From contig JANRJG010000009.1 of assembly GCA_033875315.1 (NCBI GenBank), positions 62,001 to 126,000 of the forward strand: 64,000 bases of DNA, written 5' to 3'. The notes below the pieces were generated by a model that saw only the letters and a program-made list of their open reading frames with translations, searched no databases and was not told where the DNA came from. The position numbers were made by a program, and so were the translations under genes. The DNA comes from Candidatus Methylacidiphilales bacterium. Lineage in GTDB: Bacteria > Verrucomicrobiota > Verrucomicrobiia > Methylacidiphilales > CAZTYG01. The stretch's first letter is position 1; the number at the start of each line of letters is the position of its first letter. Shown in pieces: positions 320 to 34,568 of this stretch.

Positions 320-808
320 ATGAAACCCACGTCCAACGGTCAGTCGAAACTGCCCATCCTCGGCCTGTCTCTGGTGATCCTGGGGGCACTGTCGTTCTCG
401 GTAGAGGCTGCACCGAGCGGCCAGGCCCCCGGGACGGTCCCATCCGTGGGTTCCTTGGGGGAATTCCGCTGGAAGAACCGCGTGCTGGTCGTCCGGGCAA
501 CAGACGATGAAGCTGCCCTGATAAGGAAATTGGAGCAGGCGGCGGCCGCCTTCCGTGAGCGCGATCTGGTGTGGTTCCTCATTCGCGCGAAAGGGGTCGA
601 ATCGAACACCGGACGACCCTGCACCGCCCAATTCCGGAGCCAACTGGAGAAAATCACTTGGGGCGAAACCCCATGGAAAACCGTCCTGATCGGAAAAGAC
701 GGGGGCGTCAAAGCAAAGAGCAAAACCCTCGAAGTTGACGCCATCCTCGCCCAAATCGAAGCCATGCCCATGCGGCAACAGGAGATGCGGGAGATAAAAG
801 AGAACTAA
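320..808 (+). CDS. DUF4174 domain secreted protein
   Basis: This 162-aa protein has an N-terminal signal-like segment (about residues 10-30, ending SVEAAPS) and a small DUF4174 domain. The family's features are visible: a FRWKNRVLVV opening strand, a central RDLVWFLI strand, an LIGKDGGVK turn, and a C-terminal IDAMPMRQQEM-like helix (here IEAMPMRQQEMRE). DUF4174 proteins have a thioredoxin-like outline but lack a CxxC motif, and their biochemical role is unknown. An export signal suggests a periplasmic location. The gene stands alone, with the AT-rich island beginning about 100 bp downstream. Confidence 0.8.
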   Translation: MKPTSNGQSKLPILGLSLVILGALSFSVEAAPSGQAPGTVPSVGSLGEFRWKNRVLVVRATDDEAALIRKLEQAAAAFRERDLVWFLIRAKGVESNTGRPCTAQFRSQLEKITWGETPWKTVLIGKDGGVKAKSKTLEVDAILAQIEAMPMRQQEMREIKEN

Positions 809-983
809 GAGGGATTAACCTGACCCTGAATTGAGAAAGAAAATCAGGAAGTCAAGAATCAGGCATTGACCTCTTGGCTCCTAACTTAGAATCCCAACTT
901 GTGGGGATTGACCTCGTAGGTGTTGTAGACTATCTGTGATAGTAACTGTTAATTGATTATACAGTGCTCTTGAGCTAATTAAC
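809..983. other. Intergenic entry into the AT-rich island
   Basis: Base composition drops sharply after about 900. Fragments resembling the genome's TGACC repeats occur (AACCTGACCCTGAATTGAG at 817-835, GGGGATTGACCTC at 902-914). No promoter is convincing, although TTGTAG/GATAGT-like hexamers lie in 920-950. Confidence 0.4.
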
Positions 984-2150
984 ATGAAAACTAAATACGC
1001 AAGATACGACGCTCTTCATAACGACCACAATGTCTACATTTGCGGAGCCGGTTTTTCCGTTCCTGGAGGAATACCTACAGTTAAGGACTTTTTTAACAAG
1101 ATGCGAGATGCTTATGACTGGCTTGTTGAAAAGGAGAGATTTCCTGAAGCTGATGCAATCAAAGACGTTATATCTTTTAGAATACATTCCTCCGCAGCGG
1201 GCTATTGGACTAAATTAGATTTAGAAAATATTGAAGAGCTTTTCAGTTTAGCAGCTGCATCCTCGAAACCCGACCTATTGAAAAAAATCCCAATTGCAAT
1301 TAGCGCGACAATAAGTTACTCCAGAATCATCAATACCTCCAATAGCAGAAGTATAGGCAGTAGAACCACAGCATCAAATTTAGCTGCTTTTCCATATTTC
1401 GAAAAAGTGCCCCTAATTGGGATGCCTGATGTAGAGCTATCTATTAGTTCTTACGGTCATCATGTTGGAAAGTTATTAGGAGTTTTTCAAGATGGGACTA
1501 TAAAAGGAGAAAACACATTTATCACTTTTAATTATGATACTCTGATAGAAGAAGGATTAACGGATATAAAAGTGCCATTCACTTACTCATTTGCCAATAA
1601 AACTACAAATAATGAAATAAAAGTCCACGATTACAGAGCCGATAGTAAAGTTAAAGTCCTGAAGCTTCATGGTTCTATGAACTGGGCCAAAAAGATAGGA
1701 GGCAAAGGACGTAGATTCACACTCTACGATGATTACGATATCGTGCGTGAGAAAGGCTTCATTCCGTCAATTGTACCTCCAACATGGCAAAAAGATCTGT
1801 CGGGACCTCTTACATCAATTTGGGGAAAAGCAGTAGAAGCAATCGGCTGTGCAACTAGATTAATTATAATTGGATTTTCGATTCCCAAAACAGACACGCA
1901 CTTTAAGTACTTAATTTCTGCTGGCTTAAGAAGTAACGCCTCTCTTCGAAGTATTCATATAGTAGATCCAGATTCATCAGAAGACTATCAAAATAGACTT
2001 TACGAAATCATACCCAATGATTTTGAGAAAAGAGGTATTTTAAAATTTCACAAACAACATTTTCAACGATTCACAACTTATGATTCAGGCCCAAACGTAT
2101 TCGATGTAGGAAGACCCTGGAATAGAGACGTATTTCAACGATGGTCGTAG
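984..2150 (+). CDS. SIR2-like domain protein, candidate defence NADase
   Basis: This 388-aa protein has the nucleotide-binding signature of SIR2-like proteins: GAGFS at residues 21-25, FNYDTL at 182-187 with the usual Asn (N183) and Asp, KLHGSMNW at 227-234 carrying the expected catalytic His (H229), and GFSIP at 297-301. Relatives in bacterial islands often deplete NAD+ on phage infection, acting alone or with partner ATPases. Whether this one does is inference. Codon and base use are strongly AT-rich relative to its neighbours, which suggests horizontal acquisition. It is convergent with the P-loop ATPase gene at 3074-4639, so the two are not one operon. Confidence 0.85.
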   Translation: MKTKYARYDALHNDHNVYICGAGFSVPGGIPTVKDFFNKMRDAYDWLVEKERFPEADAIKDVISFRIHSSAAGYWTKLDLENIEELFSLAAASSKPDLLKKIPIAISATISYSRIINTSNSRSIGSRTTASNLAAFPYFEKVPLIGMPDVELSISSYGHHVGKLLGVFQDGTIKGENTFITFNYDTLIEEGLTDIKVPFTYSFANKTTNNEIKVHDYRADSKVKVLKLHGSMNWAKKIGGKGRRFTLYDDYDIVREKGFIPSIVPPTWQKDLSGPLTSIWGKAVEAIGCATRLIIIGFSIPKTDTHFKYLISAGLRSNASLRSIHIVDPDSSEDYQNRLYEIIPNDFEKRGILKFHKQHFQRFTTYDSGPNVFDVGRPWNRDVFQRWS

Positions 2151-2312
2151 GACTATTCAGAAGAGTAGCGCTGGAAAAGAATTTTAAAATGATCAGCAAG
2201 CATATCTTGAATCTTCCATTTTTTTACTTGTGACCGATTGACTATATTTAAGAACTAGCCCTTGGTGCCTTAAAAAAATGAAGAGGTATCCGGCCTGTCA
2301 TTAATCCAAAAG

Positions 2313-2501
2313 TTGATCGCGTGTGTCCCAGAAATCACTTCCGATGCAGAAACCAGCCTGAAAATATCCCGTTTTTCTGTGAGATACAAGAAACTGGGAG
2401 TGGAAGTGCCGACGGTGATCAAAGTATGCCGCACCTGCCGCAATGCCTACGATGCCCGCTTGGCCCAATGCCCTTCAGATGGGCAATCGCAAACGATTTA
2501 A
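2313..2501 (+). pseudogene. Possible zinc-ribbon protein fragment
   Basis: A 62-codon frame with a TTG start ends in KVCRTCRNAYDARLAQCPSD followed by G, that is CxxC, nine residues, then CPSDG. This is the layout of zinc ribbons seen beside kinases and envelope proteins (CPxCGxxY...CPxDG). There is no ribosome-binding site, and the second knuckle lacks a full CxxC. It lies in repeat debris and ends on the direct repeat at 2488-2540, so it is more likely a gene remnant than a working gene. It could also be chance. Confidence 0.25.
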
Positions 2502-2540
2502 TGCAAGGTTAGTTTAGCTCAATTCTGTCAAGAGTCATGG
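2488..2540. repeat. Direct repeat copy 1 (420-bp spacing)
   Basis: The segment shares GCAAACGATTTAATGC, then TTAGCTC, ATTCTGT and a GAGTC-like tail in the same order and spacing with 2908-2960. The offset is exactly 420 bp. It could be a small tandem duplication that has diverged internally, or the ends of a decayed element. Confidence 0.6.
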
Positions 2541-2907
2541 GCCTGTTGCCCAAATCATCTATGTGAAAATTGAAGGAAACCAAGAGCCTTAAAATCGTTT
2601 ATACGGCGCTTTGATTTTCCCCCAAGGTGTTTTGCTCTCAAGAAAACAATGCATTTCTGGGTTTTAAGCATTCGGGCAACAGGCCGTCATGGGTTGACCC
2701 CATGCATCCTTTAAGGGCGGTTGGTCGAATTGGTGTCTATTAGAATGGCGTTAAGGCCGTTGTAGCCCTCAACTCGGAGCATGACACCTTTCCAAGCCTA
2801 CTGCCAATTCATTGGTACTGGGATCGTTTTTAATTTTCCCGGGGCACTTGGATCTGGAACTCGAACATTGAGCCAACCATCCTGACCTGACCCCGCTGAT
2901 GGCCAAG

Positions 2908-2960
2908 TGCAAACGATTTAATGCTGCTTAAGCTTAGCTCTATTCTGTGATGAGTCGTGG
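2908..2960. repeat. Direct repeat copy 2 (420-bp spacing)
   Basis: This is the partner of 2488-2540, with the same block order. It runs directly into a palindromic GGGTTGACCCC motif and then a REP-like hairpin, as transposon-associated repeat units often do. Confidence 0.6.
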
Positions 2961-3073
2961 GTTGACCCCATGCGCGCGGCTCCCCCGTAGTGTTTCAGGG
3001 TCGAGCCGGTTTCAGGTCAGCATCCCAGACGCGGGTCCCGTCCTCAACGTCGGATCCGATGTCGGAAAACACA

Positions 3074-4639
3074 TCACTCAAACACATCATCAAAATCCGC
3101 CTCAGATCCTGATTTTGTATATTTTTTTAAGCCTAAATATTCTTGCAACCCAAGATGAACGCGAAATTGAATTGAAGCTTCATTAAAAAGTGCCTGCGAA
3201 TCCTTGAATTTCCAAACATACGACGCTCCTCCCATGTTACCTCCAGGAGCATAATATCCAATCACAGAAAATTCAAAAAGCTGCTTAAGCGCCGTGATAA
3301 ATGAAACTCCAGCCGGAGTTATCAACCTTCTATCCTCCCAGGCTTGTTCAAAGTCATTTGCTGTAAATTGAAGCGAGCTCAATCCTTTTAATACCTCAAA
3401 ATACACCTCGAACTGTGGCATATGCTTGAAAATCTCATCTCTTAATTCTTGATAAAAATAATTCGAATAAGCTCCACGAGCACCACCTATGTCTTTATTT
3501 GAAAACTTAGCCCCTCGTTCTTTATTTCTTTTATAAGTAATTAATATTTCGTTACAGAATTTAATCATATCTCTTGGACGCATATACGTCCTATCAACAA
3601 TATGATTATACTTTTTCTGTTTGCCACGCATTTTTTCTTCTTCATCAAAAACTGCACCCCAATCAACTGGCTTCCCATCACCAAGAATAGTAGAAAAGCG
3701 CTTCTCCATTAACTGCCTCAACGAGACAGAGCCATCCTTATCCCATGCTATTCGACTGCAAAATGTCTGAGTAATCTTATTTTTATCTTCGAACCGAAGA
3801 ATATCATAAATATCGTCACGCAAAAACACGACCACCGAAGCTTTCTTGCTCGCCCTTTCAGCTCGAATATTAAAATCTCTGGCCGCCAAGATTAAACCAA
3901 TCAAACGTTGCGAATAGCCACTCTCTTCTTTATTGAACCCCAAATCTAGTTGGTCGAAGCAAAGATAGTAGTGCAGTTTACCATTCAATGAACCAATAAT
4001 TGCTTCAAGTAGATTCTTGTTAATCTCTTGAATAATTTTTGGCAAATAATCCATATCCACACTTTCAGCGCCGAAATTAAGATTCGCAGCATTAAAAAGA
4101 AGACTTACTCCGCCTGTGAATTTTAATCTGCGTGCAGGCGAGAAAATTTGTGTTACATCAGGATTTCTAGTACCATAACTATCGATTATAAATCTCTCAA
4201 TTTTTGAGAGATTTTCCTCCGCGAATTCAGAACAAGGCTGAGAGTGATCTTGGTTCAATAAAACTTTTGCCATGGAGATAAGGATCAAATATTTCCACGC
4301 ATGCAAATACGCATCTTCCTCAGGAACTCCAATAGCCTTTTGCTTTTCGTGATGCTGCCACGGATAATCTGAAAAATCGAAGCCAAGCGAAAAGGTATCA
4401 TAAGCCTTCAGTGATATCAGCTTTCTATATATCGCTGTTTTTCCGCTGCCTTTACGTCCAATAATTAAGAATTTTGAGTGATCCTTTGCCTTCTCATATG
4501 CCGGATGATCTTCAAAGCACTCCTCTAAGAGTTTATCTGTGTCTGCATCAATACCACCAAAAGTTTCTGCCTGATATAAATTCATCCATTTACCATCTCG
4601 ATTTTTCACTTCTACAGACGTTAGTTCAAAAAACGCCAC
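3074..4639 (-). CDS. P-loop ATPase, Sll1717-like family
   Basis: This 521-aa protein has a Walker A motif GRKGSGKTA at residues 61-69 and a Walker-B-like YLCFDQLDLGF in the middle. An arginine-containing segment follows (VVFLRDDIYDILRFEDKNK), and then a helical C-terminal region. The pattern resembles the P-loop ATPases annotated as the Sll1717 family, which occur sporadically in genomic islands and may belong to defence modules. That role is inferred from context. The gene is AT-rich, like the SIR2 gene. The apparent GTG start lies immediately after the nrdA terminator and has no Shine-Dalgarno sequence. An internal ATG at residue 19 is an alternative start. Confidence 0.7.
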   Translation of the reverse strand: MAFFELTSVEVKNRDGKWMNLYQAETFGGIDADTDKLLEECFEDHPAYEKAKDHSKFLIIGRKGSGKTAIYRKLISLKAYDTFSLGFDFSDYPWQHHEKQKAIGVPEEDAYLHAWKYLILISMAKVLLNQDHSQPCSEFAEENLSKIERFIIDSYGTRNPDVTQIFSPARRLKFTGGVSLLFNAANLNFGAESVDMDYLPKIIQEINKNLLEAIIGSLNGKLHYYLCFDQLDLGFNKEESGYSQRLIGLILAARDFNIRAERASKKASVVVFLRDDIYDILRFEDKNKITQTFCSRIAWDKDGSVSLRQLMEKRFSTILGDGKPVDWGAVFDEEEKMRGKQKKYNHIVDRTYMRPRDMIKFCNEILITYKRNKERGAKFSNKDIGGARGAYSNYFYQELRDEIFKHMPQFEVYFEVLKGLSSLQFTANDFEQAWEDRRLITPAGVSFITALKQLFEFSVIGYYAPGGNMGGASYVWKFKDSQALFNEASIQFRVHLGLQEYLGLKKYTKSGSEADFDDVFE

Positions 4640-4640
4640 A

Positions 4641-4669
4641 AAAAAACGGTGTTACTCCCACCGTTTTTT
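4641..4669 (-). terminator. Rho-independent terminator after nrdA (bidirectional form)
   Basis: AAAAAACGGTG (4641-4651) and CACCGTTTTTT (4659-4669) form a perfect 11-bp inverted repeat with a 7-nt loop and A/T tracts on both sides. It ends the nrdBA transcript, which reads leftward. The ATPase start codon is directly beyond it. Confidence 0.85.
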
Positions 4670-4700: not shown

Positions 4701-7550
4701 TCACTGGCAGGCCTCGCAGGTTCCACCGTTGCGCATGGCTTCGAGGGAGCAGGCTTGGACTTCGTCGGGGGTGTAGTCCCGCTTGCCATTGTCCTCGGCG
4801 TTCTTCTTGCGCTCGCGGTTGGCGCTATCGATGGCGCTCTTGTTGAAAGTGCGCAGATAATACGTCGTCTTGAGTCCCCTCTCCCAGGCTTCGCGGTACA
4901 TGAAGCTGGCGGTGCGGGCGTCGTTTTCTCCCAGGAAGAGGTTGGTGCTCTGGGCCTGGTCGATCCACTTCTGGCGGACGGCGGCGCATTGCAAGATCCA
5001 GGTGGGCTCGATCTCGAAGGCGGTCTTGAAAACGCGCTTCACCTCGGCCGGGATGCGGTCGATCGGCTGGATCGATCCGTCAAAGTACTTCAAGTCGGCC
5101 AGCATCTCGTCGTCCCAGAGGTTGAGGTCCTGGAGTTTTTTCACCAGGAAGTCGTTGGTGCGGACGAAGTCGCCGGAGAGGTTGGACTTGGTGTGGATGT
5201 GTTTGTAGGTGGGTTCGATGCAGGGGGTCGAGCCCATGATGTTCGAAATCGTGGCGGTGGGGGCGATGGCGAGGCAGTTGGAGTTCCGCATGCCCTGGCG
5301 CTGGATTTTCTCCCGCAGCGCGCCCCAATCGAGGCGGCTCTTGCGGTCGACCATGAGCGGGCACCCGCGTTCCTGTTCGAGGAGGTCGAGGGTGTCGAGC
5401 GGCATGAGGCCGCGCTGCCACTTCGAGCCGTGGAAGGAGGAATAGCTGCCGCGCTCAGCCGCCAGGTCGCTGGAGGCGCTGTAGGCGTAGTAGGCGATGG
5501 CCTCGAGGAGTTCGTCGTTGATGTCGACGGCTTCGGGGGAGTCGAAGGAAACTCCTTTTTTGTAGAGCACGTCCTGCAGGCCCATGACGCCGAGCCCGAC
5601 CGGGCGGTGGCGGTAGTTGGAGTTGGCGGCGGCCTCGACGGGGTAGTAGTTGATGTCGATGACGTTGTCCAACATCCGCATGAGGACGGTGACGGTGGTG
5701 CGGAGCTTGTCGTGGTCGATGCTGCCGTCTTCGCGCAGGTGTTCCGGGAGGTTGACCGAGGCGAGGTTGCAGACGGCGACCTCATCCGAGGAGGTGTTGA
5801 GTTCGATCTCGGTGCAGAGGTTGGAGTTGTGGATGACCCCGGCGTGGTCCTGGGGGCTGCGGACGTTGGCGGGATCCTTCCAGGTGAACCAGGGGTGGCC
5901 GGTCTCGAAGATCATTTCGATCATCTTCTTCCAGAGGGCGAGGATGCGGATCTTGCGGCCGTAGACCTTGCCTTCGTCGGCGAGACGCTCGTATTCGTGG
6001 TAGCGGTCCTCGAAGGCCTTGCCGTAGAGCTCGACTAGGTCGGGGGTTTCGTTGGAGCGGAAGAGCGTCCAGGTGGCGTCCTTGGGCAGCTTGCCGTCGG
6101 AGATGTCCTTGAGGCGCTTCATGAACAGGTCCGGGATCCAGTGGGCCGTGTTCATGTTGTGGGTGCGGCGGCGGTCGTCGCCGGTTTCCTTGCGCAGGTC
6201 GAGGAAGTCTTCGACATCGGTGTGCCAGAGCTCGAGGTAGGAGCAGAGGGCGCCCGGGCGCTTGCCGCCCTGGTTGACGGCGATGGCGATGTCGTTCGAG
6301 ACCTTGAGGAAGGGGATGATGCCGGAGGATTCCCCGTTGGTGCCCATGATGTGGGCGCCGGTGCCGCGGACGGCGGTCCAGGAGCAGCCGAGGCCGCCGG
6401 CCCACTTGGAGAGCATGGAGAAGCGGCGCCAGGTCTCGGTGATTTCCTCGATGGAGTCGCCGCAGTAGAGGAGGTAGCAACTGGAGAGCTGCGAGTGGAG
6501 CGTGCCGGCGTTGAAGAGCGTGGGGGTGGAGGAGCAGCCGCGCTTGGTCTTGTAGACGTTGTAGAACTCGATGGCGCGCTGGTTTTTCTGGGGCTCGTTG
6601 AGGGAAAGGCCCATGGCGACGCGCATCCAGAACATCTGGGGGGATTCGAGGCGTTTCTTGCCGCCATTGACCTTGTCGACCGTGTGGTGGATGAGGTAGC
6701 GGTCGTAGAGGGTCTGGACGCCGAGGAAGTCGAACTGGAGGTCGGCGAAGGGGTCGAGGGCCTCGGCCAGCTCGCGGAGGTTGAAGTCGGCCAGGGCGGG
6801 ATTGAGACGTTGGAACTCGATGCCCTTGGGGATGTAGTCGAGGAAGGCCTTGATGTGGGCGGCCTTGAGGGCGTCGATGCCGTCGGTGATCTTCCAGGGC
6901 AGGGTTTCCTCGTAGATGTAGGTCAGGAGGAGCCGACCGGCGAGGAAGCGGGAATCGGCGTCGACGTCGAGGAGGTTCTTGGCGTTGAGGATGATGGTGT
7001 CGCGTTGTTCCTCCTTGGAGAGGGACATTGAGGCGCTGCGGAGGAGTCGGGAGATGAGATCGCCTTCCGAGAGCGTGAGGTGGAGGCCGATCTTGGCGAA
7101 GGAGATGCGGGCGCGGATTTCGGCCAGTTGTTCGCGGGTGGCGAGCTCAAGCTGGTCGGGGCTGTCGGCGTGGCCCTGTTCGGCCTGGAGTTCGCGCAGG
7201 GCGGCGCGGCGGGCGCGGTACTTGCCGTAGGCGATGGCGACGCGGGGCTGGCCGATCTCGAGGAGGGTTTCCTCGACGAGGTCCTGGAGCTGTTCGATGT
7301 GGATGAAGAGCGGGCGCTCCTTGCGCATGCGGAATTCGATCTCGGCCCGCACCTGGGCCCCGACGGGGGCGTCGATGCCCAGTTCCACGCAGGCGGCCTG
7401 GACGGCGTGCTCGATCTTGTGTCCGAGCCAGGGGACGACCCGCGGCTTGGTGTTGGCGGCGGAGGGGGTGAGATCGCGGCGGATGACCTGGGGGTAGTCC
7501 GAGGATGAAGTTCCAGACGCGAGGTGGGTGTCGGAAAGGGTGGTGGACAT
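4701..7550 (-). CDS. nrdA: Ribonucleoside-diphosphate reductase, alpha subunit (class I)
   Basis: This 949-aa protein catalyses reduction of ribonucleotides to deoxyribonucleotides with NrdB. An N-terminal ATP-cone-like region (about residues 15-110) precedes the catalytic barrel. Visible active-site features are SSCYLLYCGD (redox Cys), NLCTEIELN (Asn, thiyl-radical Cys and Glu), VCNLASVNL (second redox Cys), and a C-terminal GGTCEACQ swinging-arm CxxC. The ATG at 7550 is preceded by TTGGAGATAACT, giving a good Shine-Dalgarno. The gene lies 74 bp after nrdB on the same strand, so the order is nrdB-nrdA. A strong terminator follows. Confidence 0.97.
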   Translation of the reverse strand: MSTTLSDTHLASGTSSSDYPQVIRRDLTPSAANTKPRVVPWLGHKIEHAVQAACVELGIDAPVGAQVRAEIEFRMRKERPLFIHIEQLQDLVEETLLEIGQPRVAIAYGKYRARRAALRELQAEQGHADSPDQLELATREQLAEIRARISFAKIGLHLTLSEGDLISRLLRSASMSLSKEEQRDTIILNAKNLLDVDADSRFLAGRLLLTYIYEETLPWKITDGIDALKAAHIKAFLDYIPKGIEFQRLNPALADFNLRELAEALDPFADLQFDFLGVQTLYDRYLIHHTVDKVNGGKKRLESPQMFWMRVAMGLSLNEPQKNQRAIEFYNVYKTKRGCSSTPTLFNAGTLHSQLSSCYLLYCGDSIEEITETWRRFSMLSKWAGGLGCSWTAVRGTGAHIMGTNGESSGIIPFLKVSNDIAIAVNQGGKRPGALCSYLELWHTDVEDFLDLRKETGDDRRRTHNMNTAHWIPDLFMKRLKDISDGKLPKDATWTLFRSNETPDLVELYGKAFEDRYHEYERLADEGKVYGRKIRILALWKKMIEMIFETGHPWFTWKDPANVRSPQDHAGVIHNSNLCTEIELNTSSDEVAVCNLASVNLPEHLREDGSIDHDKLRTTVTVLMRMLDNVIDINYYPVEAAANSNYRHRPVGLGVMGLQDVLYKKGVSFDSPEAVDINDELLEAIAYYAYSASSDLAAERGSYSSFHGSKWQRGLMPLDTLDLLEQERGCPLMVDRKSRLDWGALREKIQRQGMRNSNCLAIAPTATISNIMGSTPCIEPTYKHIHTKSNLSGDFVRTNDFLVKKLQDLNLWDDEMLADLKYFDGSIQPIDRIPAEVKRVFKTAFEIEPTWILQCAAVRQKWIDQAQSTNLFLGENDARTASFMYREAWERGLKTTYYLRTFNKSAIDSANRERKKNAEDNGKRDYTPDEVQACSLEAMRNGGTCEACQ

Positions 7551-7624
7551 AGTTATCTCCAATGGAGTGATTAGGTGATTGGGAGATTAGTGATTGAGTT
7601 GATGAGTTATGGATTGGGACCGGA

Positions 7625-8791
<1,167 letters not shown>

Positions 8792-32063: not shown

Positions 32064-33415
32064 ATGCGGTCGACCCCCATCAGCCCAACCCTCCGCTCCG
32101 GTCCACCGCCGTCCAGATCGTACAAAAACTACAACAGGCCGGTCACACGGCCTACTTCGCCGGAGGTTGTGTGCGCGACGAACTCCTTGGCCGCACCCCC
32201 AAGGATTACGACATCGCCACCTCCGCCACCCCGGAACAGGTGCAACAACTCTTCGACCGCGTCACCGATCTCCAGGGCAAATCCTTCGGCGTCCTCCGGG
32301 TCATGAAGGGAGACCACGCCTTCGAAGTCGCCACCTTCCGCCACGACGGCACCTACCGCGACGGCCGCCGCCCGGAGTCTGTGACCTTCGCCACACCGGA
32401 AGAGGACGCACGGCGGCGCGACTTCACCGTCAACGGACTCTTCCTCGACCCCGTCACCGGCCAGGTCATCGACTTCGTGGGCGGGCAGGACGACCTGCGG
32501 GCGGGCCTTCTCCGCGCCATTGGCCGTGCCGAAGACCGCTTCCAGGAAGACCACCTCCGCCTCTTCCGCGCGGTGCGCTTCGCCGCCAACCTCGATTTCC
32601 AGATCGACCCCGCCACTTGGCAAGCCGTCCTGCACCTTTCCAACCTCGGCCGGGATCTGGCCCCCGAACGCGTCCGCGACGAACTGATCCGCTGCTTCAC
32701 CGGCCCGCACCCGCAACGCGCGCTCGATCTCCTGATGGAAAGCCGTCTCCTCGACTTCTGGATTCCGGAAATCCGGGAAATGATGGGCGTGGAACAACCG
32801 CCGCAATTCCACCCCGAGGGCGATGTCTACACCCATGTCCGCTTGATGGTCGGCATGCTCAAAGACGCCGACGTCGTCCTCGCCTTCAGCGTCCTCCTGC
32901 ACGACATCTCCAAGCCCGAAACCTACTTCGTCGACCACACCGGCCGCATCCGCTTCAACGAACACGAAAGCCGCGGGGCCCGCAAGGCCGAGGACATCCT
33001 CCGTCGCCTGCGTTTTTCCAACGAACAGATCGAGGCCATCTGCGCCTGCATCGCTAACCACATGGCCTTCAAGGATGTGCCCCACATGCGCGTCAGCACG
33101 CTCAAACGATTCCTGGCCCGACCGACCATGCCGGTGGAAATCGAACTCCACCGCATTGATTGTTCCGGCAGCCACAACGATCTGGAGATCTACGACCTGG
33201 TGAAACAGAAGCTGGAGGAATTCGCCCACGAGCCCCTCAAACCCGACCCCCTGGTCAACGGCAAGGATCTGCAAGCGCTCGGCATGGAACCGGGACGGGA
33301 GATGGGCAAAATCCTCCACCAATTGATGGACGAACAATTGGAAGGCCGTTTCCGCGACCGCGAGGCCGCCCTCAAACGGGCCAAAGCCCTCCTCCAATCG
33401 CTGGGCATCGGTTGA
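32060..33415 (+). CDS. CCA tRNA nucleotidyltransferase / poly(A) polymerase family
   Basis: This 451-aa class II nucleotidyltransferase has AYFAGGCVRDELLGRTPKDY then DIATSA (metal-binding DxD within the NTase fold), RRRDFTVNGLF, EDRFQEDHLRLFRAVRFAA, and a C-terminal HD-like region (FSVLLHDISKP, CACIANHMAF). It adds or repairs the 3' CCA of tRNAs, or acts as a poly(A) polymerase; sequence reading alone does not separate these. The ATG at 32060 overlaps the upstream stop. Confidence 0.9.
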   Translation: MNAVDPHQPNPPLRSTAVQIVQKLQQAGHTAYFAGGCVRDELLGRTPKDYDIATSATPEQVQQLFDRVTDLQGKSFGVLRVMKGDHAFEVATFRHDGTYRDGRRPESVTFATPEEDARRRDFTVNGLFLDPVTGQVIDFVGGQDDLRAGLLRAIGRAEDRFQEDHLRLFRAVRFAANLDFQIDPATWQAVLHLSNLGRDLAPERVRDELIRCFTGPHPQRALDLLMESRLLDFWIPEIREMMGVEQPPQFHPEGDVYTHVRLMVGMLKDADVVLAFSVLLHDISKPETYFVDHTGRIRFNEHESRGARKAEDILRRLRFSNEQIEAICACIANHMAFKDVPHMRVSTLKRFLARPTMPVEIELHRIDCSGSHNDLEIYDLVKQKLEEFAHEPLKPDPLVNGKDLQALGMEPGREMGKILHQLMDEQLEGRFRDREAALKRAKALLQSLGIG

Positions 33416-33450
33416 GAGACAATCGAAGTACCTAGCATGGAAAATGGAGA

Positions 33451-33460
33451 GTTGACCCCA
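33451..33460. repeat. TTGACCCC repeat, left arm
   Basis: GTTGACCCCA with downstream TTCATG is the inverse of ATTCATGGGGTCAGC at 33814-33825. The two arms bracket the AT-rich small ORF. Similar GGGTTGACCCC motifs occur at 144-154, 2691-2701 and 2959-2969. Confidence 0.55.
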
Positions 33461-33536
33461 TTCATGCTTCAAGAAGACATAGACCGTGAATTCTCAAGAT
33501 GGACAGAGTTCGTGAAGTTAAAAAGGGAGCTTTGCT

Positions 33537-33812
33537 GTGAAATTAAATGAGTATAGTATGCTGTTATGTTTAGCATTAGCTTTAATGCTTTTGGTTATTT
33601 TAACTAAATTACTATTTAAGAAATCGAATAAAGTTTTAGCTATTTGCGCTGGGCTGACCTCTTTTGCTGTAGGAAGTATTAGTATGTGTAATGTATGGTT
33701 TGGCTCGCAAAAATTTTCCGTAAATAATTTTGTTAATGACCTTGGTTTAATAGTAAGCGGAATCGCAATGATTGTCGGTTCTTGCATTGTGCTATCCTTA
33801 AGAAGAAAGTGA
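33537..33812 (+). CDS. Small AT-rich membrane protein, unknown
   Basis: This 91-aa protein is almost wholly hydrophobic, with three likely transmembrane helices (about residues 7-27, 32-52 and 65-86) and a RRK end. Base composition is far more AT-rich than its neighbours, which suggests foreign origin. It is bracketed by inverted TGACCCC repeats. AAAGGGAGC lies upstream of the start, with a spacing long enough to make the site uncertain. No family is recognised. Confidence 0.5.
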   Translation: MKLNEYSMLLCLALALMLLVILTKLLFKKSNKVLAICAGLTSFAVGSISMCNVWFGSQKFSVNNFVNDLGLIVSGIAMIVGSCIVLSLRRK

Positions 33813-33815
33813 TTC

Positions 33816-33828
33816 ATGGGGTCAGCCC
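33816..33828. repeat. GGGGTCA repeat, right arm
   Basis: ATGGGGTCAGCCC is the inverse of the arm at 33451-33460. It lies about 55 bp upstream of the decayed Y1 transposase, a position where such repeats commonly occur beside this transposase family (recollection, not tested). Confidence 0.55.
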
Positions 33829-33881
33829 TTGAAAATTGAATCACCTTGACGCCAACTTCCCCTCGCGGTTAGGTTCTCCGC

Positions 33882-34047
33882 ATGGCACGCAAGCCAAGAC
33901 TTGAATGGGAGGGAGCCTCCTACGATGTCTTCCTAAGACGGTGCGGAATGATCCTCCGGACTCTGAAAAGGAGCCGCTTCGCGGCAAAGCGCGATCATGG
34001 CCCGAGGCAACGAACGGACCCGGATCTTCGAAAGCAAGGCAAACTAA
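33882..34047 (+). pseudogene. Decayed Y1 (IS200/RAYT-like) transposase remnant
   Basis: The first segment encodes MARKPRLEWEGASYDV, matching the N-terminus of a large Y1 transposase group (MARKPRxExxGAxYHV). After about 65 bp of unrelated sequence, MARGNERTRIFE appears in another frame (33997-34047). That is the next motif of the same family (xMARGNERRxIF). The HUH motif and catalytic tyrosine are missing. It is a frameshifted, truncated remnant of a different subfamily from the intact RAYT at 12818-13267. Confidence 0.7.
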
Positions 34048-34203
34048 TACCAAATGGAATTGAGTAGGCGTAAAAGTGCCTTATGGGAGGGCGAAGCTCC
34101 TGGCTCCCCCGTAAGCATTCGGGGCTGAGCCGCCCTTGAAATAGAGACATCAAACCGGCTCGGCAGGAGCCTCGCCCTCCCGCATATTCTGTCGCTCAGT
34201 CAT
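34048..34203. repeat. BIME-type REP element, copy A
   Basis: Core arms GGGAGGGCGAAGCTCC (34085-34100) and GGCTCGGCAGGAGCCTCGCC (34157-34176) are inverted. Outer flanks (ACCAAATGGAATTGAGTAGG and TTCTGTCGCTCAGTC) match copy B at 44311-44449 in reverse orientation. About 22 bp (CTCCCCCGTAAGCATTCGGG core) is inserted in the left arm relative to the other copies, and similar sequence occurs at about 2980-3012. Confidence 0.8.
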
Positions 34204-34365
34204 TTTAATTTGGTTTTAAACCAAACACCACTGATTGAAGCGATTTCCACTCAATGGACGCGTTCTGCTCTTGTTTCTCTCATACCATTTTGTAGGGCGG
34301 CAGTCCCTTGTCGCCAGTTTCAACGAGCGGCGGCAGGGGACTGTCGCCCAGTCCATATGATTTGG

Positions 34366-34437
34366 CATGACTCGCTCTCGTGCTCGTTCTCTCCCATTCA
34401 TAGAGCATGAGAATGAGAAAGAGTATGAGAACGAGCA
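34366..34437. repeat. Imperfect inverted GAGAAC-type hexamer repeat
   Basis: CTCGTGCTCGTTCTCTCCCA (34376-34395) and the later ATGAGAATGAGAAAGAGTAT (34406-34425), then GAGAACGAG, form two inverted arms of degenerate hexamers. A related element lies at about 44260-44495, where it is split by a BIME copy. Confidence 0.6.
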
Positions 34438-34568
34438 GCTGAAGTTTCGTTCTGAAAAGGGGCAACGGGGAAAGGGTTCCCCATCTACAGGAAGCGTGGA
34501 GCGACTGCCTAGGGAAGCCAACCCTCCGCCCGGCCCGGCGGCTCGCCCGGGCGGGTTTCTGCGCTCGG

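What the first reader, a model, noticed from the sequence alone, without database searches (positions are those of the whole stretch)
900..4640. AT-rich island with a SIR2-like and an Sll1717-like ATPase gene
Both genes have composition very unlike their neighbours and belong to families often found in defence islands. They are convergent across about 900 bp of repeat debris, so each may be a separate single-gene system or part of a disrupted one. No known SIR2 partner (HerA, Thoeris ThsA/ThsB fusion or others) was recognised.
Basis: partly seen in the sequence, partly recalled or inferred. Interest (0 to 1): 0.6.

Follow-up and report, generated by a model that had tools for sequence, protein, structure and literature searches.

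The report
Two solo defence-like genes behind ribonucleotide reductase
A short AT-rich insertion behind the ribonucleotide reductase genes of this bacterium carries two intact foreign genes, a stand-alone NAD-consuming SIR2 enzyme and a widely spread ATPase, that are probably two separate one-gene anti-virus defences, and the ATPase sits in the kind of genomic slot that other bacteria also fill with defence genes.

Summary
Window 984-2150 (+) encodes an intact 388-aa SIR2_2 protein, and 3074-4639 (-) an intact 521-aa P-loop ATPase of NCBIfam family ATPase_Sll1717. Both are foreign by composition (GC3 0.30 and 0.33, against 0.87-0.91 in nrdB/nrdA). The island ends directly behind the nrdA terminator; order relatives have nrdB-nrdA without either gene. 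The two genes are not a conserved pair: no overlap in 388 phylum genomes, and among 50 genomes with the ATPase only two carry any SIR2 protein within 10 kb, both long and unrelated. The SIR2 resembles the SIR2 subunit of SIR2-HerA (Nezha) but has no HerA beside it, and several of its relatives are also solo, some in phage contigs. The ATPase is a solo, horizontally spread AAA+ protein (ORC/Cdc6-STAND-like), absent from PADLOC and weakly related to anti-phage protein DS41_1. In two Sphingomonas genomes, divergent copies (38% identical) sit 5 bp behind nrdB, at a site where 19 of 33 genomes carry low-GC cargo, including AbiP/AbiC-like, PD-T7-4-like, PDC-S34, Schlafen/AlbA and OLD/AriA-like genes. 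That makes defence the best reading for the ATPase. Defence itself is untested; mechanisms are inferred. Mostly new members of known kinds; the nrd-end hotspot is the more interesting by-product.

The parts
984..2150 (+). Solo SIR2_2 protein, 388 aa, intact
   Evidence: PF13289 1.7e-8; PADLOC SIR2 5.4e-14; profile hit to SIR2 of SIR2-HerA 4.7e-30 and 2.7e-23
1044..1058 (+). GAGFS NAD-binding motif (residues 21-25) of the SIR2
   Evidence: conserved as G[AS]G.[ST] in relatives
1530..1538 (+). N183-Y184-D185, catalytic Asn motif of the SIR2
   Evidence: Asn and Asp invariant in alignment
1668..1670 (+). H229 of KLHGS, catalytic His of the SIR2
   Evidence: invariant in all 19 aligned SIR2 proteins
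2151..3073 (.). Non-coding spacer with a degenerate 71-bp direct repeat (2471-2541 / 2891-2961)
   Evidence: no credible gene
3074..4639 (-). P-loop ATPase, Sll1717 family, 521 aa (probable start ATG 4585, 503 aa)
   Evidence: NF047389 1.3e-95; start from alignment with relatives and low pLDDT of residues 1-14
4436..4459 (-). Walker A GRKGSGKT (residues 61-68)
   Evidence: G61, K63, G64, G66, K67, T68 invariant in 50 relatives
3944..3964 (-). Walker B-like LCFDQLD (residues 226-232; D229, D232 invariant)
   Evidence: strand E223-229 in the model
3569..3580 (-). Invariant RPRD (residues 354-357), sensor-2-like position
   Evidence: role inferred
4641..4669 (-). Intrinsic terminator of nrdBA; right boundary of the island
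   Evidence: 11-bp stem plus T run
4701..7562 (-). nrdA, ribonucleotide reductase large chain (native flank)
   Evidence: PF02867 1.6e-183; conserved in order relatives
7625..8791 (-). nrdB, ribonucleotide reductase small chain (native flank)
   Evidence: PF00268 2.4e-66
320..808 (+). DUF4174 gene, left flank (GC3 0.73)
   Evidence: PF13778 1.8e-17

Best explanation
The AT-rich stretch is a horizontally acquired insertion between the nrdA terminator and a DUF4174 gene. It carries two independent, intact, single-gene phage-defence candidates. (1) A stand-alone SIR2_2 NADase, with GAGFS, NYD and KLHGS intact, predicted to hydrolyse NAD+ on infection and abort it; the trigger is unknown. (2) A solo Sll1717-family AAA+ ATPase with an ORC/Cdc6-STAND-like core and a probable C-terminal winged helix, predicted to act as an ATP-gated sensor that blocks phage replication or kills the infected cell; it has no recognised effector domain. 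Shown: gene families, intact motifs, foreign composition, absence from relatives, no conserved pairing, and the defence content of a comparable nrd-end site in Sphingomonas. Inferred: anti-phage function, NAD+ hydrolysis, ATPase mechanism.
For: Family hits; GC/GC3; no ATPase or SIR2 at the nrdB-nrdA loci of order relatives and sparse in the phylum, SIR2 in 12 and ATPase in 3 of 388 genomes with only this genome in both lists. ATPase spread across many phyla at 45-51% identity, on conjugative plasmids and viral contigs, without a recurrent partner. Two Sphingomonas genomes carry 38%-identical copies 5 bp behind nrdB, at a site where 19/33 loci have low-GC cargo against 0/33 on the upstream side, and shared DNA in 7/528 genome pairs against 383/528, with defence-family cargo. 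39/50 family members hit DS41_1 anti-phage below its cut-off. SIR2 model and profile nearest to SIR2 of SIR2-HerA; relatives solo in viral contigs L147, L210-L212.
Against: No phage data. The ATPase matches no PADLOC model, and its neighbours elsewhere are mostly ordinary genes with only a few defence hits. The SIR2 model is low confidence (pLDDT 54). The nrd-end parallel comes from an unrelated lineage; in the window's own order only 2 of the sampled nrdB-nrdA genomes show foreign cargo there (L064 integrase, L065 HigBA-like).
Confidence: 0.62

Rival explanations
1. The two genes form one two-gene system: the ATPase senses infection and activates the SIR2 NADase, as HerA does in SIR2-HerA.
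For: They lie together in one foreign island. The SIR2 is most like the SIR2 subunit of SIR2-HerA, which needs an ATPase partner. In L112 a long SIR2 protein lies 141 bp upstream of a Sll1717 ATPase on the same strand, and in L107 another lies near it; 2 of 50 is about 28 times the chance expectation of 0.07 (my estimate).
Against: Convergent and 923 bp apart. In the other 48 genomes no SIR2_2 hit falls in the ATPase locus. The two SIR2 neighbours are 1017-1197 aa and unrelated to each other and to this one. No overlap in 388 phylum genomes. Sll1717 is ORC/STAND-like, not HerA-like.
Confidence: 0.1
2. The SIR2 is a relic of a SIR2-HerA (Nezha) system that lost HerA, and is now inert or a decaying toxin.
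For: Best structural and profile matches are Nezha SIR2 subunits; two distant relatives keep a HerA-like gene downstream (L148, L050); degenerate repeat DNA lies downstream.
Against: ORF and all motifs are intact; the 923-bp spacer holds no HerA-like ORF. In a weakly resolved tree it falls with solo SIR2s rather than the HerA-linked ones.
Confidence: 0.13
3. The ATPase is a nucleotide-pool or RNR accessory gene co-acquired with the nrd operon, not a defence gene.
For: Directly behind nrd genes, same strand, in two unrelated lineages (window; Sphingomonas L093/L094).
Against: In Sphingomonas the same slot holds many unrelated genes, several of known defence families. Other ATPase loci sampled are not near nrd. 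In the window a terminator separates it from nrdA.
Confidence: 0.08

Closest known systems
SIR2 subunit of SIR2-HerA (Nezha) (PDB 8j4u, 8su9-8suw, 8w9l, 8yhx)
   Same: Same SIR2_2 fold and size (381-428 aa against 388), catalytic Asn/His, best profile and structure matches
   Different: No HerA gene next to it; about 18% identity in the structural alignment
DSR1/DSR2, ThsA (Thoeris), Avs5, SIR2-APAZ short pAgo
   Same: SIR2_2 NADase domain; PADLOC ThsA and Aga_SIR2 models hit weakly
   Different: No C-terminal sensor, SLOG, STAND or APAZ domain, no ThsB or Argonaute recognised beside it
NCBIfam NF047389 ATPase_Sll1717
   Same: Full-length member, 321 bits against a cut-off of 75
   Different: No difference found; the family itself has no assigned function (no paper in the library names it)
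DS41_1 anti-phage protein (NF053860; DefensePredictor, PMC13092281)
   Same: Significant partial similarity (2.4e-13, residues 265-433); 39 of 50 family members also hit
   Different: 49.9 bits, far below the equivalog cut-off of 370: a distant relative, not a member
ORC/Cdc6 and archaeal STAND-like AAA+ (2qby, 2fna), BrxC
   Same: Fold of the ATPase core and probable winged helix (E 1e-4 to 9e-4)
   Different: TM-scores only 0.33-0.37 of the query, 11-14% identity; fold-level kinship only

Membership tests
SIR2_2 (PF13289) NADase superfamily | Pfam match above cut-off | tested here: met
   35.1 against 24.5 bits
SIR2_2 (PF13289) NADase superfamily | GxGxS, Asn and His catalytic motifs | tested here: met
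   G21AGFS, N183YD, H229GS
SIR2_2 (PF13289) NADase superfamily | NAD+ hydrolysis | not testable with these tools
   needs an assay
SIR2-HerA (Nezha) | Adjacent HerA-family ATPase | tested here: not met
   No HerA-like ORF next to the SIR2; the neighbouring ATPase is Sll1717/ORC-like
Thoeris | SIR2-SLOG ThsA with ThsB TIR | tested here: not met
   388 aa, only SIR2_2 in Pfam; no TIR gene adjacent
DSR1/DSR2 | SIR2 followed by a long C-terminal domain | tested here: not met
   SIR2 domain runs to about residue 334 of 388
ATPase_Sll1717 (NF047389) | Match above curated cut-off, full length | tested here: met
   321 against 75 bits, profile 1-454/454
DS-41 anti-phage | NF053860 equivalog cut-off | tested here: not met
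   49.9 against 370 bits
Anti-phage defence gene | Reduces phage plaquing when expressed | not testable with these tools
   needs a phage challenge

The most novel reading that the evidence does not exclude
The Sll1717 family is an unrecognised, phylum-spanning single-protein anti-phage system built on an ORC/STAND-like AAA+ switch, and the 3' ends of ribonucleotide reductase operons are recurrent landing sites for single defence genes in unrelated bacteria.
Probability: 0.35. Interest if true: 0.62.

Novelty: new member of a known kind. Interest (0 to 1): 0.4.

Why it matters
The SIR2 adds a divergent stand-alone member to the anti-phage sirtuins, a group in which partner-free members are poorly characterised. 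The ATPase belongs to a family named by NCBI but without a known function; its single-gene, plasmid- and phage-borne distribution and its place in a Sphingomonas defence slot make a simple, testable case that it is a defence protein. The nrdB 3'-end slot itself, with different low-GC cargo in more than half of the sampled loci, could be mined for further one-gene defences.

Tried and rejected
Close relatives of the SIR2 in viral contigs by single-sequence query: none; phage records: none. Search for a conserved partner of the ATPase over 80 loci: none recurrent. The first SIR2 scan of the ATPase neighbourhoods with home-made profiles reported none, but those profiles were too weak: Pfam later found a long SIR2 protein in L112, so the count was redone with PF13289 over 50 genomes. 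Dispersed genome-wide repeat as the source of the spacer: rejected. SIR2 AlphaFold model: low confidence (pLDDT 54), used only for fold class. BFVD search with the ATPase model: nothing at E<0.001. SIR2 tree: mostly unresolved, long branches. Papers on Sll1717 or on RNR-end defence hotspots: none found in the library.

Full report
Observation. The stretch 900-4640 holds two intact convergent ORFs. The + strand gene (984-2150, 388 aa) matches SIR2_2 PF13289 at 1.7e-8 and several PADLOC SIR2 models, best 5.4e-14. The - strand gene (3074-4639, 521 aa) matches NCBIfam ATPase_Sll1717 over its whole length at 1.3e-95, but no PADLOC model. GC3 is 0.30 and 0.33, against 0.91 in nrdA and 0.87 in nrdB next door.

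Boundaries. On the right the composition change coincides with an intrinsic terminator (4641-4669) just behind the nrdA stop. The ATPase probably starts at ATG 4585, because relatives begin there and the first residues of the model are of low confidence. On the left the island starts somewhere between the end of a DUF4174 gene (808) and 983. No other genome of this family was among the relatives offered, so no exact empty site could be read. In six order relatives with nrdA (five of them with nrdB also in the stretch read) neither gene is present at the locus. What follows nrdA there differs: a phage-integrase-family gene in G002, a HigBA-like pair in G010 (by eye), other genes in G029, G015 and G048. 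The organism is probably a verrucomicrobial bacterium near Methylacidiphilales; this is inferred from its relatives' sizes and GC, not tested.

The spacer 2151-3073 has one degenerate 71-bp repeat pair and short GGGTTGACCCC motifs. The 15-mer core is unique to this place in the genome, so 'repeat debris' is fair but nothing more can be made of it.

SIR2. Motifs GAGFS (21-25), NYD (183-185) and KLHGS with H229 are intact and conserved. A profile of three relatives finds the SIR2 subunits of SIR2-HerA complexes at 4.7e-30 to 8.6e-14; the low-confidence model (pLDDT 54) also lands on them first and on ThsA next. Yet no HerA lies beside it. Of its relatives, L148 and L050 have a HerA-like gene downstream, while L147, L210, L211, L212 (viral contigs), L040, L041, L044, L046, L059 and L060 show no obvious partner (L040-L046 read over only 1.5 kb on each side). 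A tree puts it loosely with the solo ones, without firm support. By family knowledge (PMC12700824 and works cited there), SIR2_2 proteins of bacteria deplete NAD+ in infected cells, often after a change of oligomeric state; this is the inferred mechanism here.

ATPase. Eighty relatives were drawn from GTDB genomes and 25 from viral contigs. Close ones (45-51% identity) come from unrelated phyla: Phenylobacterium, Dietzia, Nocardioides, Carboxylicivirga, Planctomycetota. Klebsiella conjugative plasmids carry 46%- and 27%-identical versions near the same RepB/recombinase end, which are only 24% identical to each other. No gene family recurs beside it. The model (pLDDT 89) matches Cdc6/Orc1, archaeal AAA+ Sso1545 and BrxC at the fold level. 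Walker A, D229/D232, R274, RPRD 354-357 and E398/E402 are invariant in 50 members. 39 of the 50 also hit DS41_1, an anti-phage protein family, below its cut-off (DS-41 is one of the validated systems of DefensePredictor, PMC13092281).

Are they a pair? Phylum search: SIR2 relatives in 12 and ATPase relatives in 3 of 388 genomes, only this genome in both. My first scan for SIR2 near the ATPase used a weak profile and gave none adjacent; it was wrong for L112. With PF13289 over 50 source genomes, two hits fall inside the ATPase loci: a 1197-aa protein 141 bp upstream in L112 and a 1017-aa protein on the opposite strand in L107. Both are unrelated to each other and to the 388-aa SIR2. Chance would give about 0.07 (15 hits in roughly 235 Mb, 20 kb looked at in each genome), so there is defence-type clustering, but not a conserved pair.

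The nrd-end slot. In Sphingomonas L093 and L094 Sll1717 ATPases, 38% identical, lie 5 bp behind nrdB. Reading what follows nrdB in 33 loci (32 from Sphingomonas or what the database places with it and one from Porphyrobacter) showed low GC (<0.52) cargo in 19, against none on the upstream side, and shared DNA in 7 of 528 pairs, against 383 of 528 upstream. Cargo tested includes PDC-S34 (8.8e-99), putAbiC/AbiP, DUF4145/PD-T7-4, SLFN_AlbA_2, AAA_15/AriA-OLD-like, and a HipA-like kinase; three of ten gave no useful hit. So in that lineage the slot behind nrdB is a cargo hotspot rich in single defence genes. The window shows the same placement in an unrelated lineage. I did not test whether nrd ends are special in general, and the upstream side is an imperfect control because it lies inside the nrd operon.

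Verdict. Two separate, probably functional one-gene defence candidates in a foreign insertion. The SIR2 is a new member of a known kind; the ATPase belongs to a named but functionally unassigned family for which this work adds contextual evidence of defence. No experiment was available.

Noticed in passing
L174-L208 (Sphingomonas genomes), directly behind nrdB: Cargo hotspot: 19 of 33 loci carry low-GC genes within the first 600 bp behind nrdB, different in nearly every genome, several of known defence families.
   Followed up: partly
L055, L056, L057 (Klebsiella IncF plasmids), next to a tyrosine recombinase near repB: The same plasmid end carries Sll1717 ATPases that are only 24% identical to each other, an allelic-swap pattern.
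   Followed up: partly
L112:6045-9638 and L107:6262-9315: Long SIR2_2 proteins (1197 and 1017 aa, DSR-like in size) next to Sll1717 ATPases; the one in L112 is on the same strand, 141 bp apart.
   Followed up: partly
L006:7468-11709 (genome C9, about 5-10 kb left of the window): A run of genes without clear Pfam assignment next to an LCAT-like alpha/beta hydrolase; possibly another acquired block.
   Followed up: no
window 33000-34500: Second AT-rich dip (GC 0.47) with a 91-aa predicted membrane protein at 33537-33812 and little else.
   Followed up: no
L211 and L212 (viral contigs): A nearly identical solo SIR2 protein (370 aa, MKTVYILGAGFS...) in two phage-like contigs with different neighbours.
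   Followed up: no
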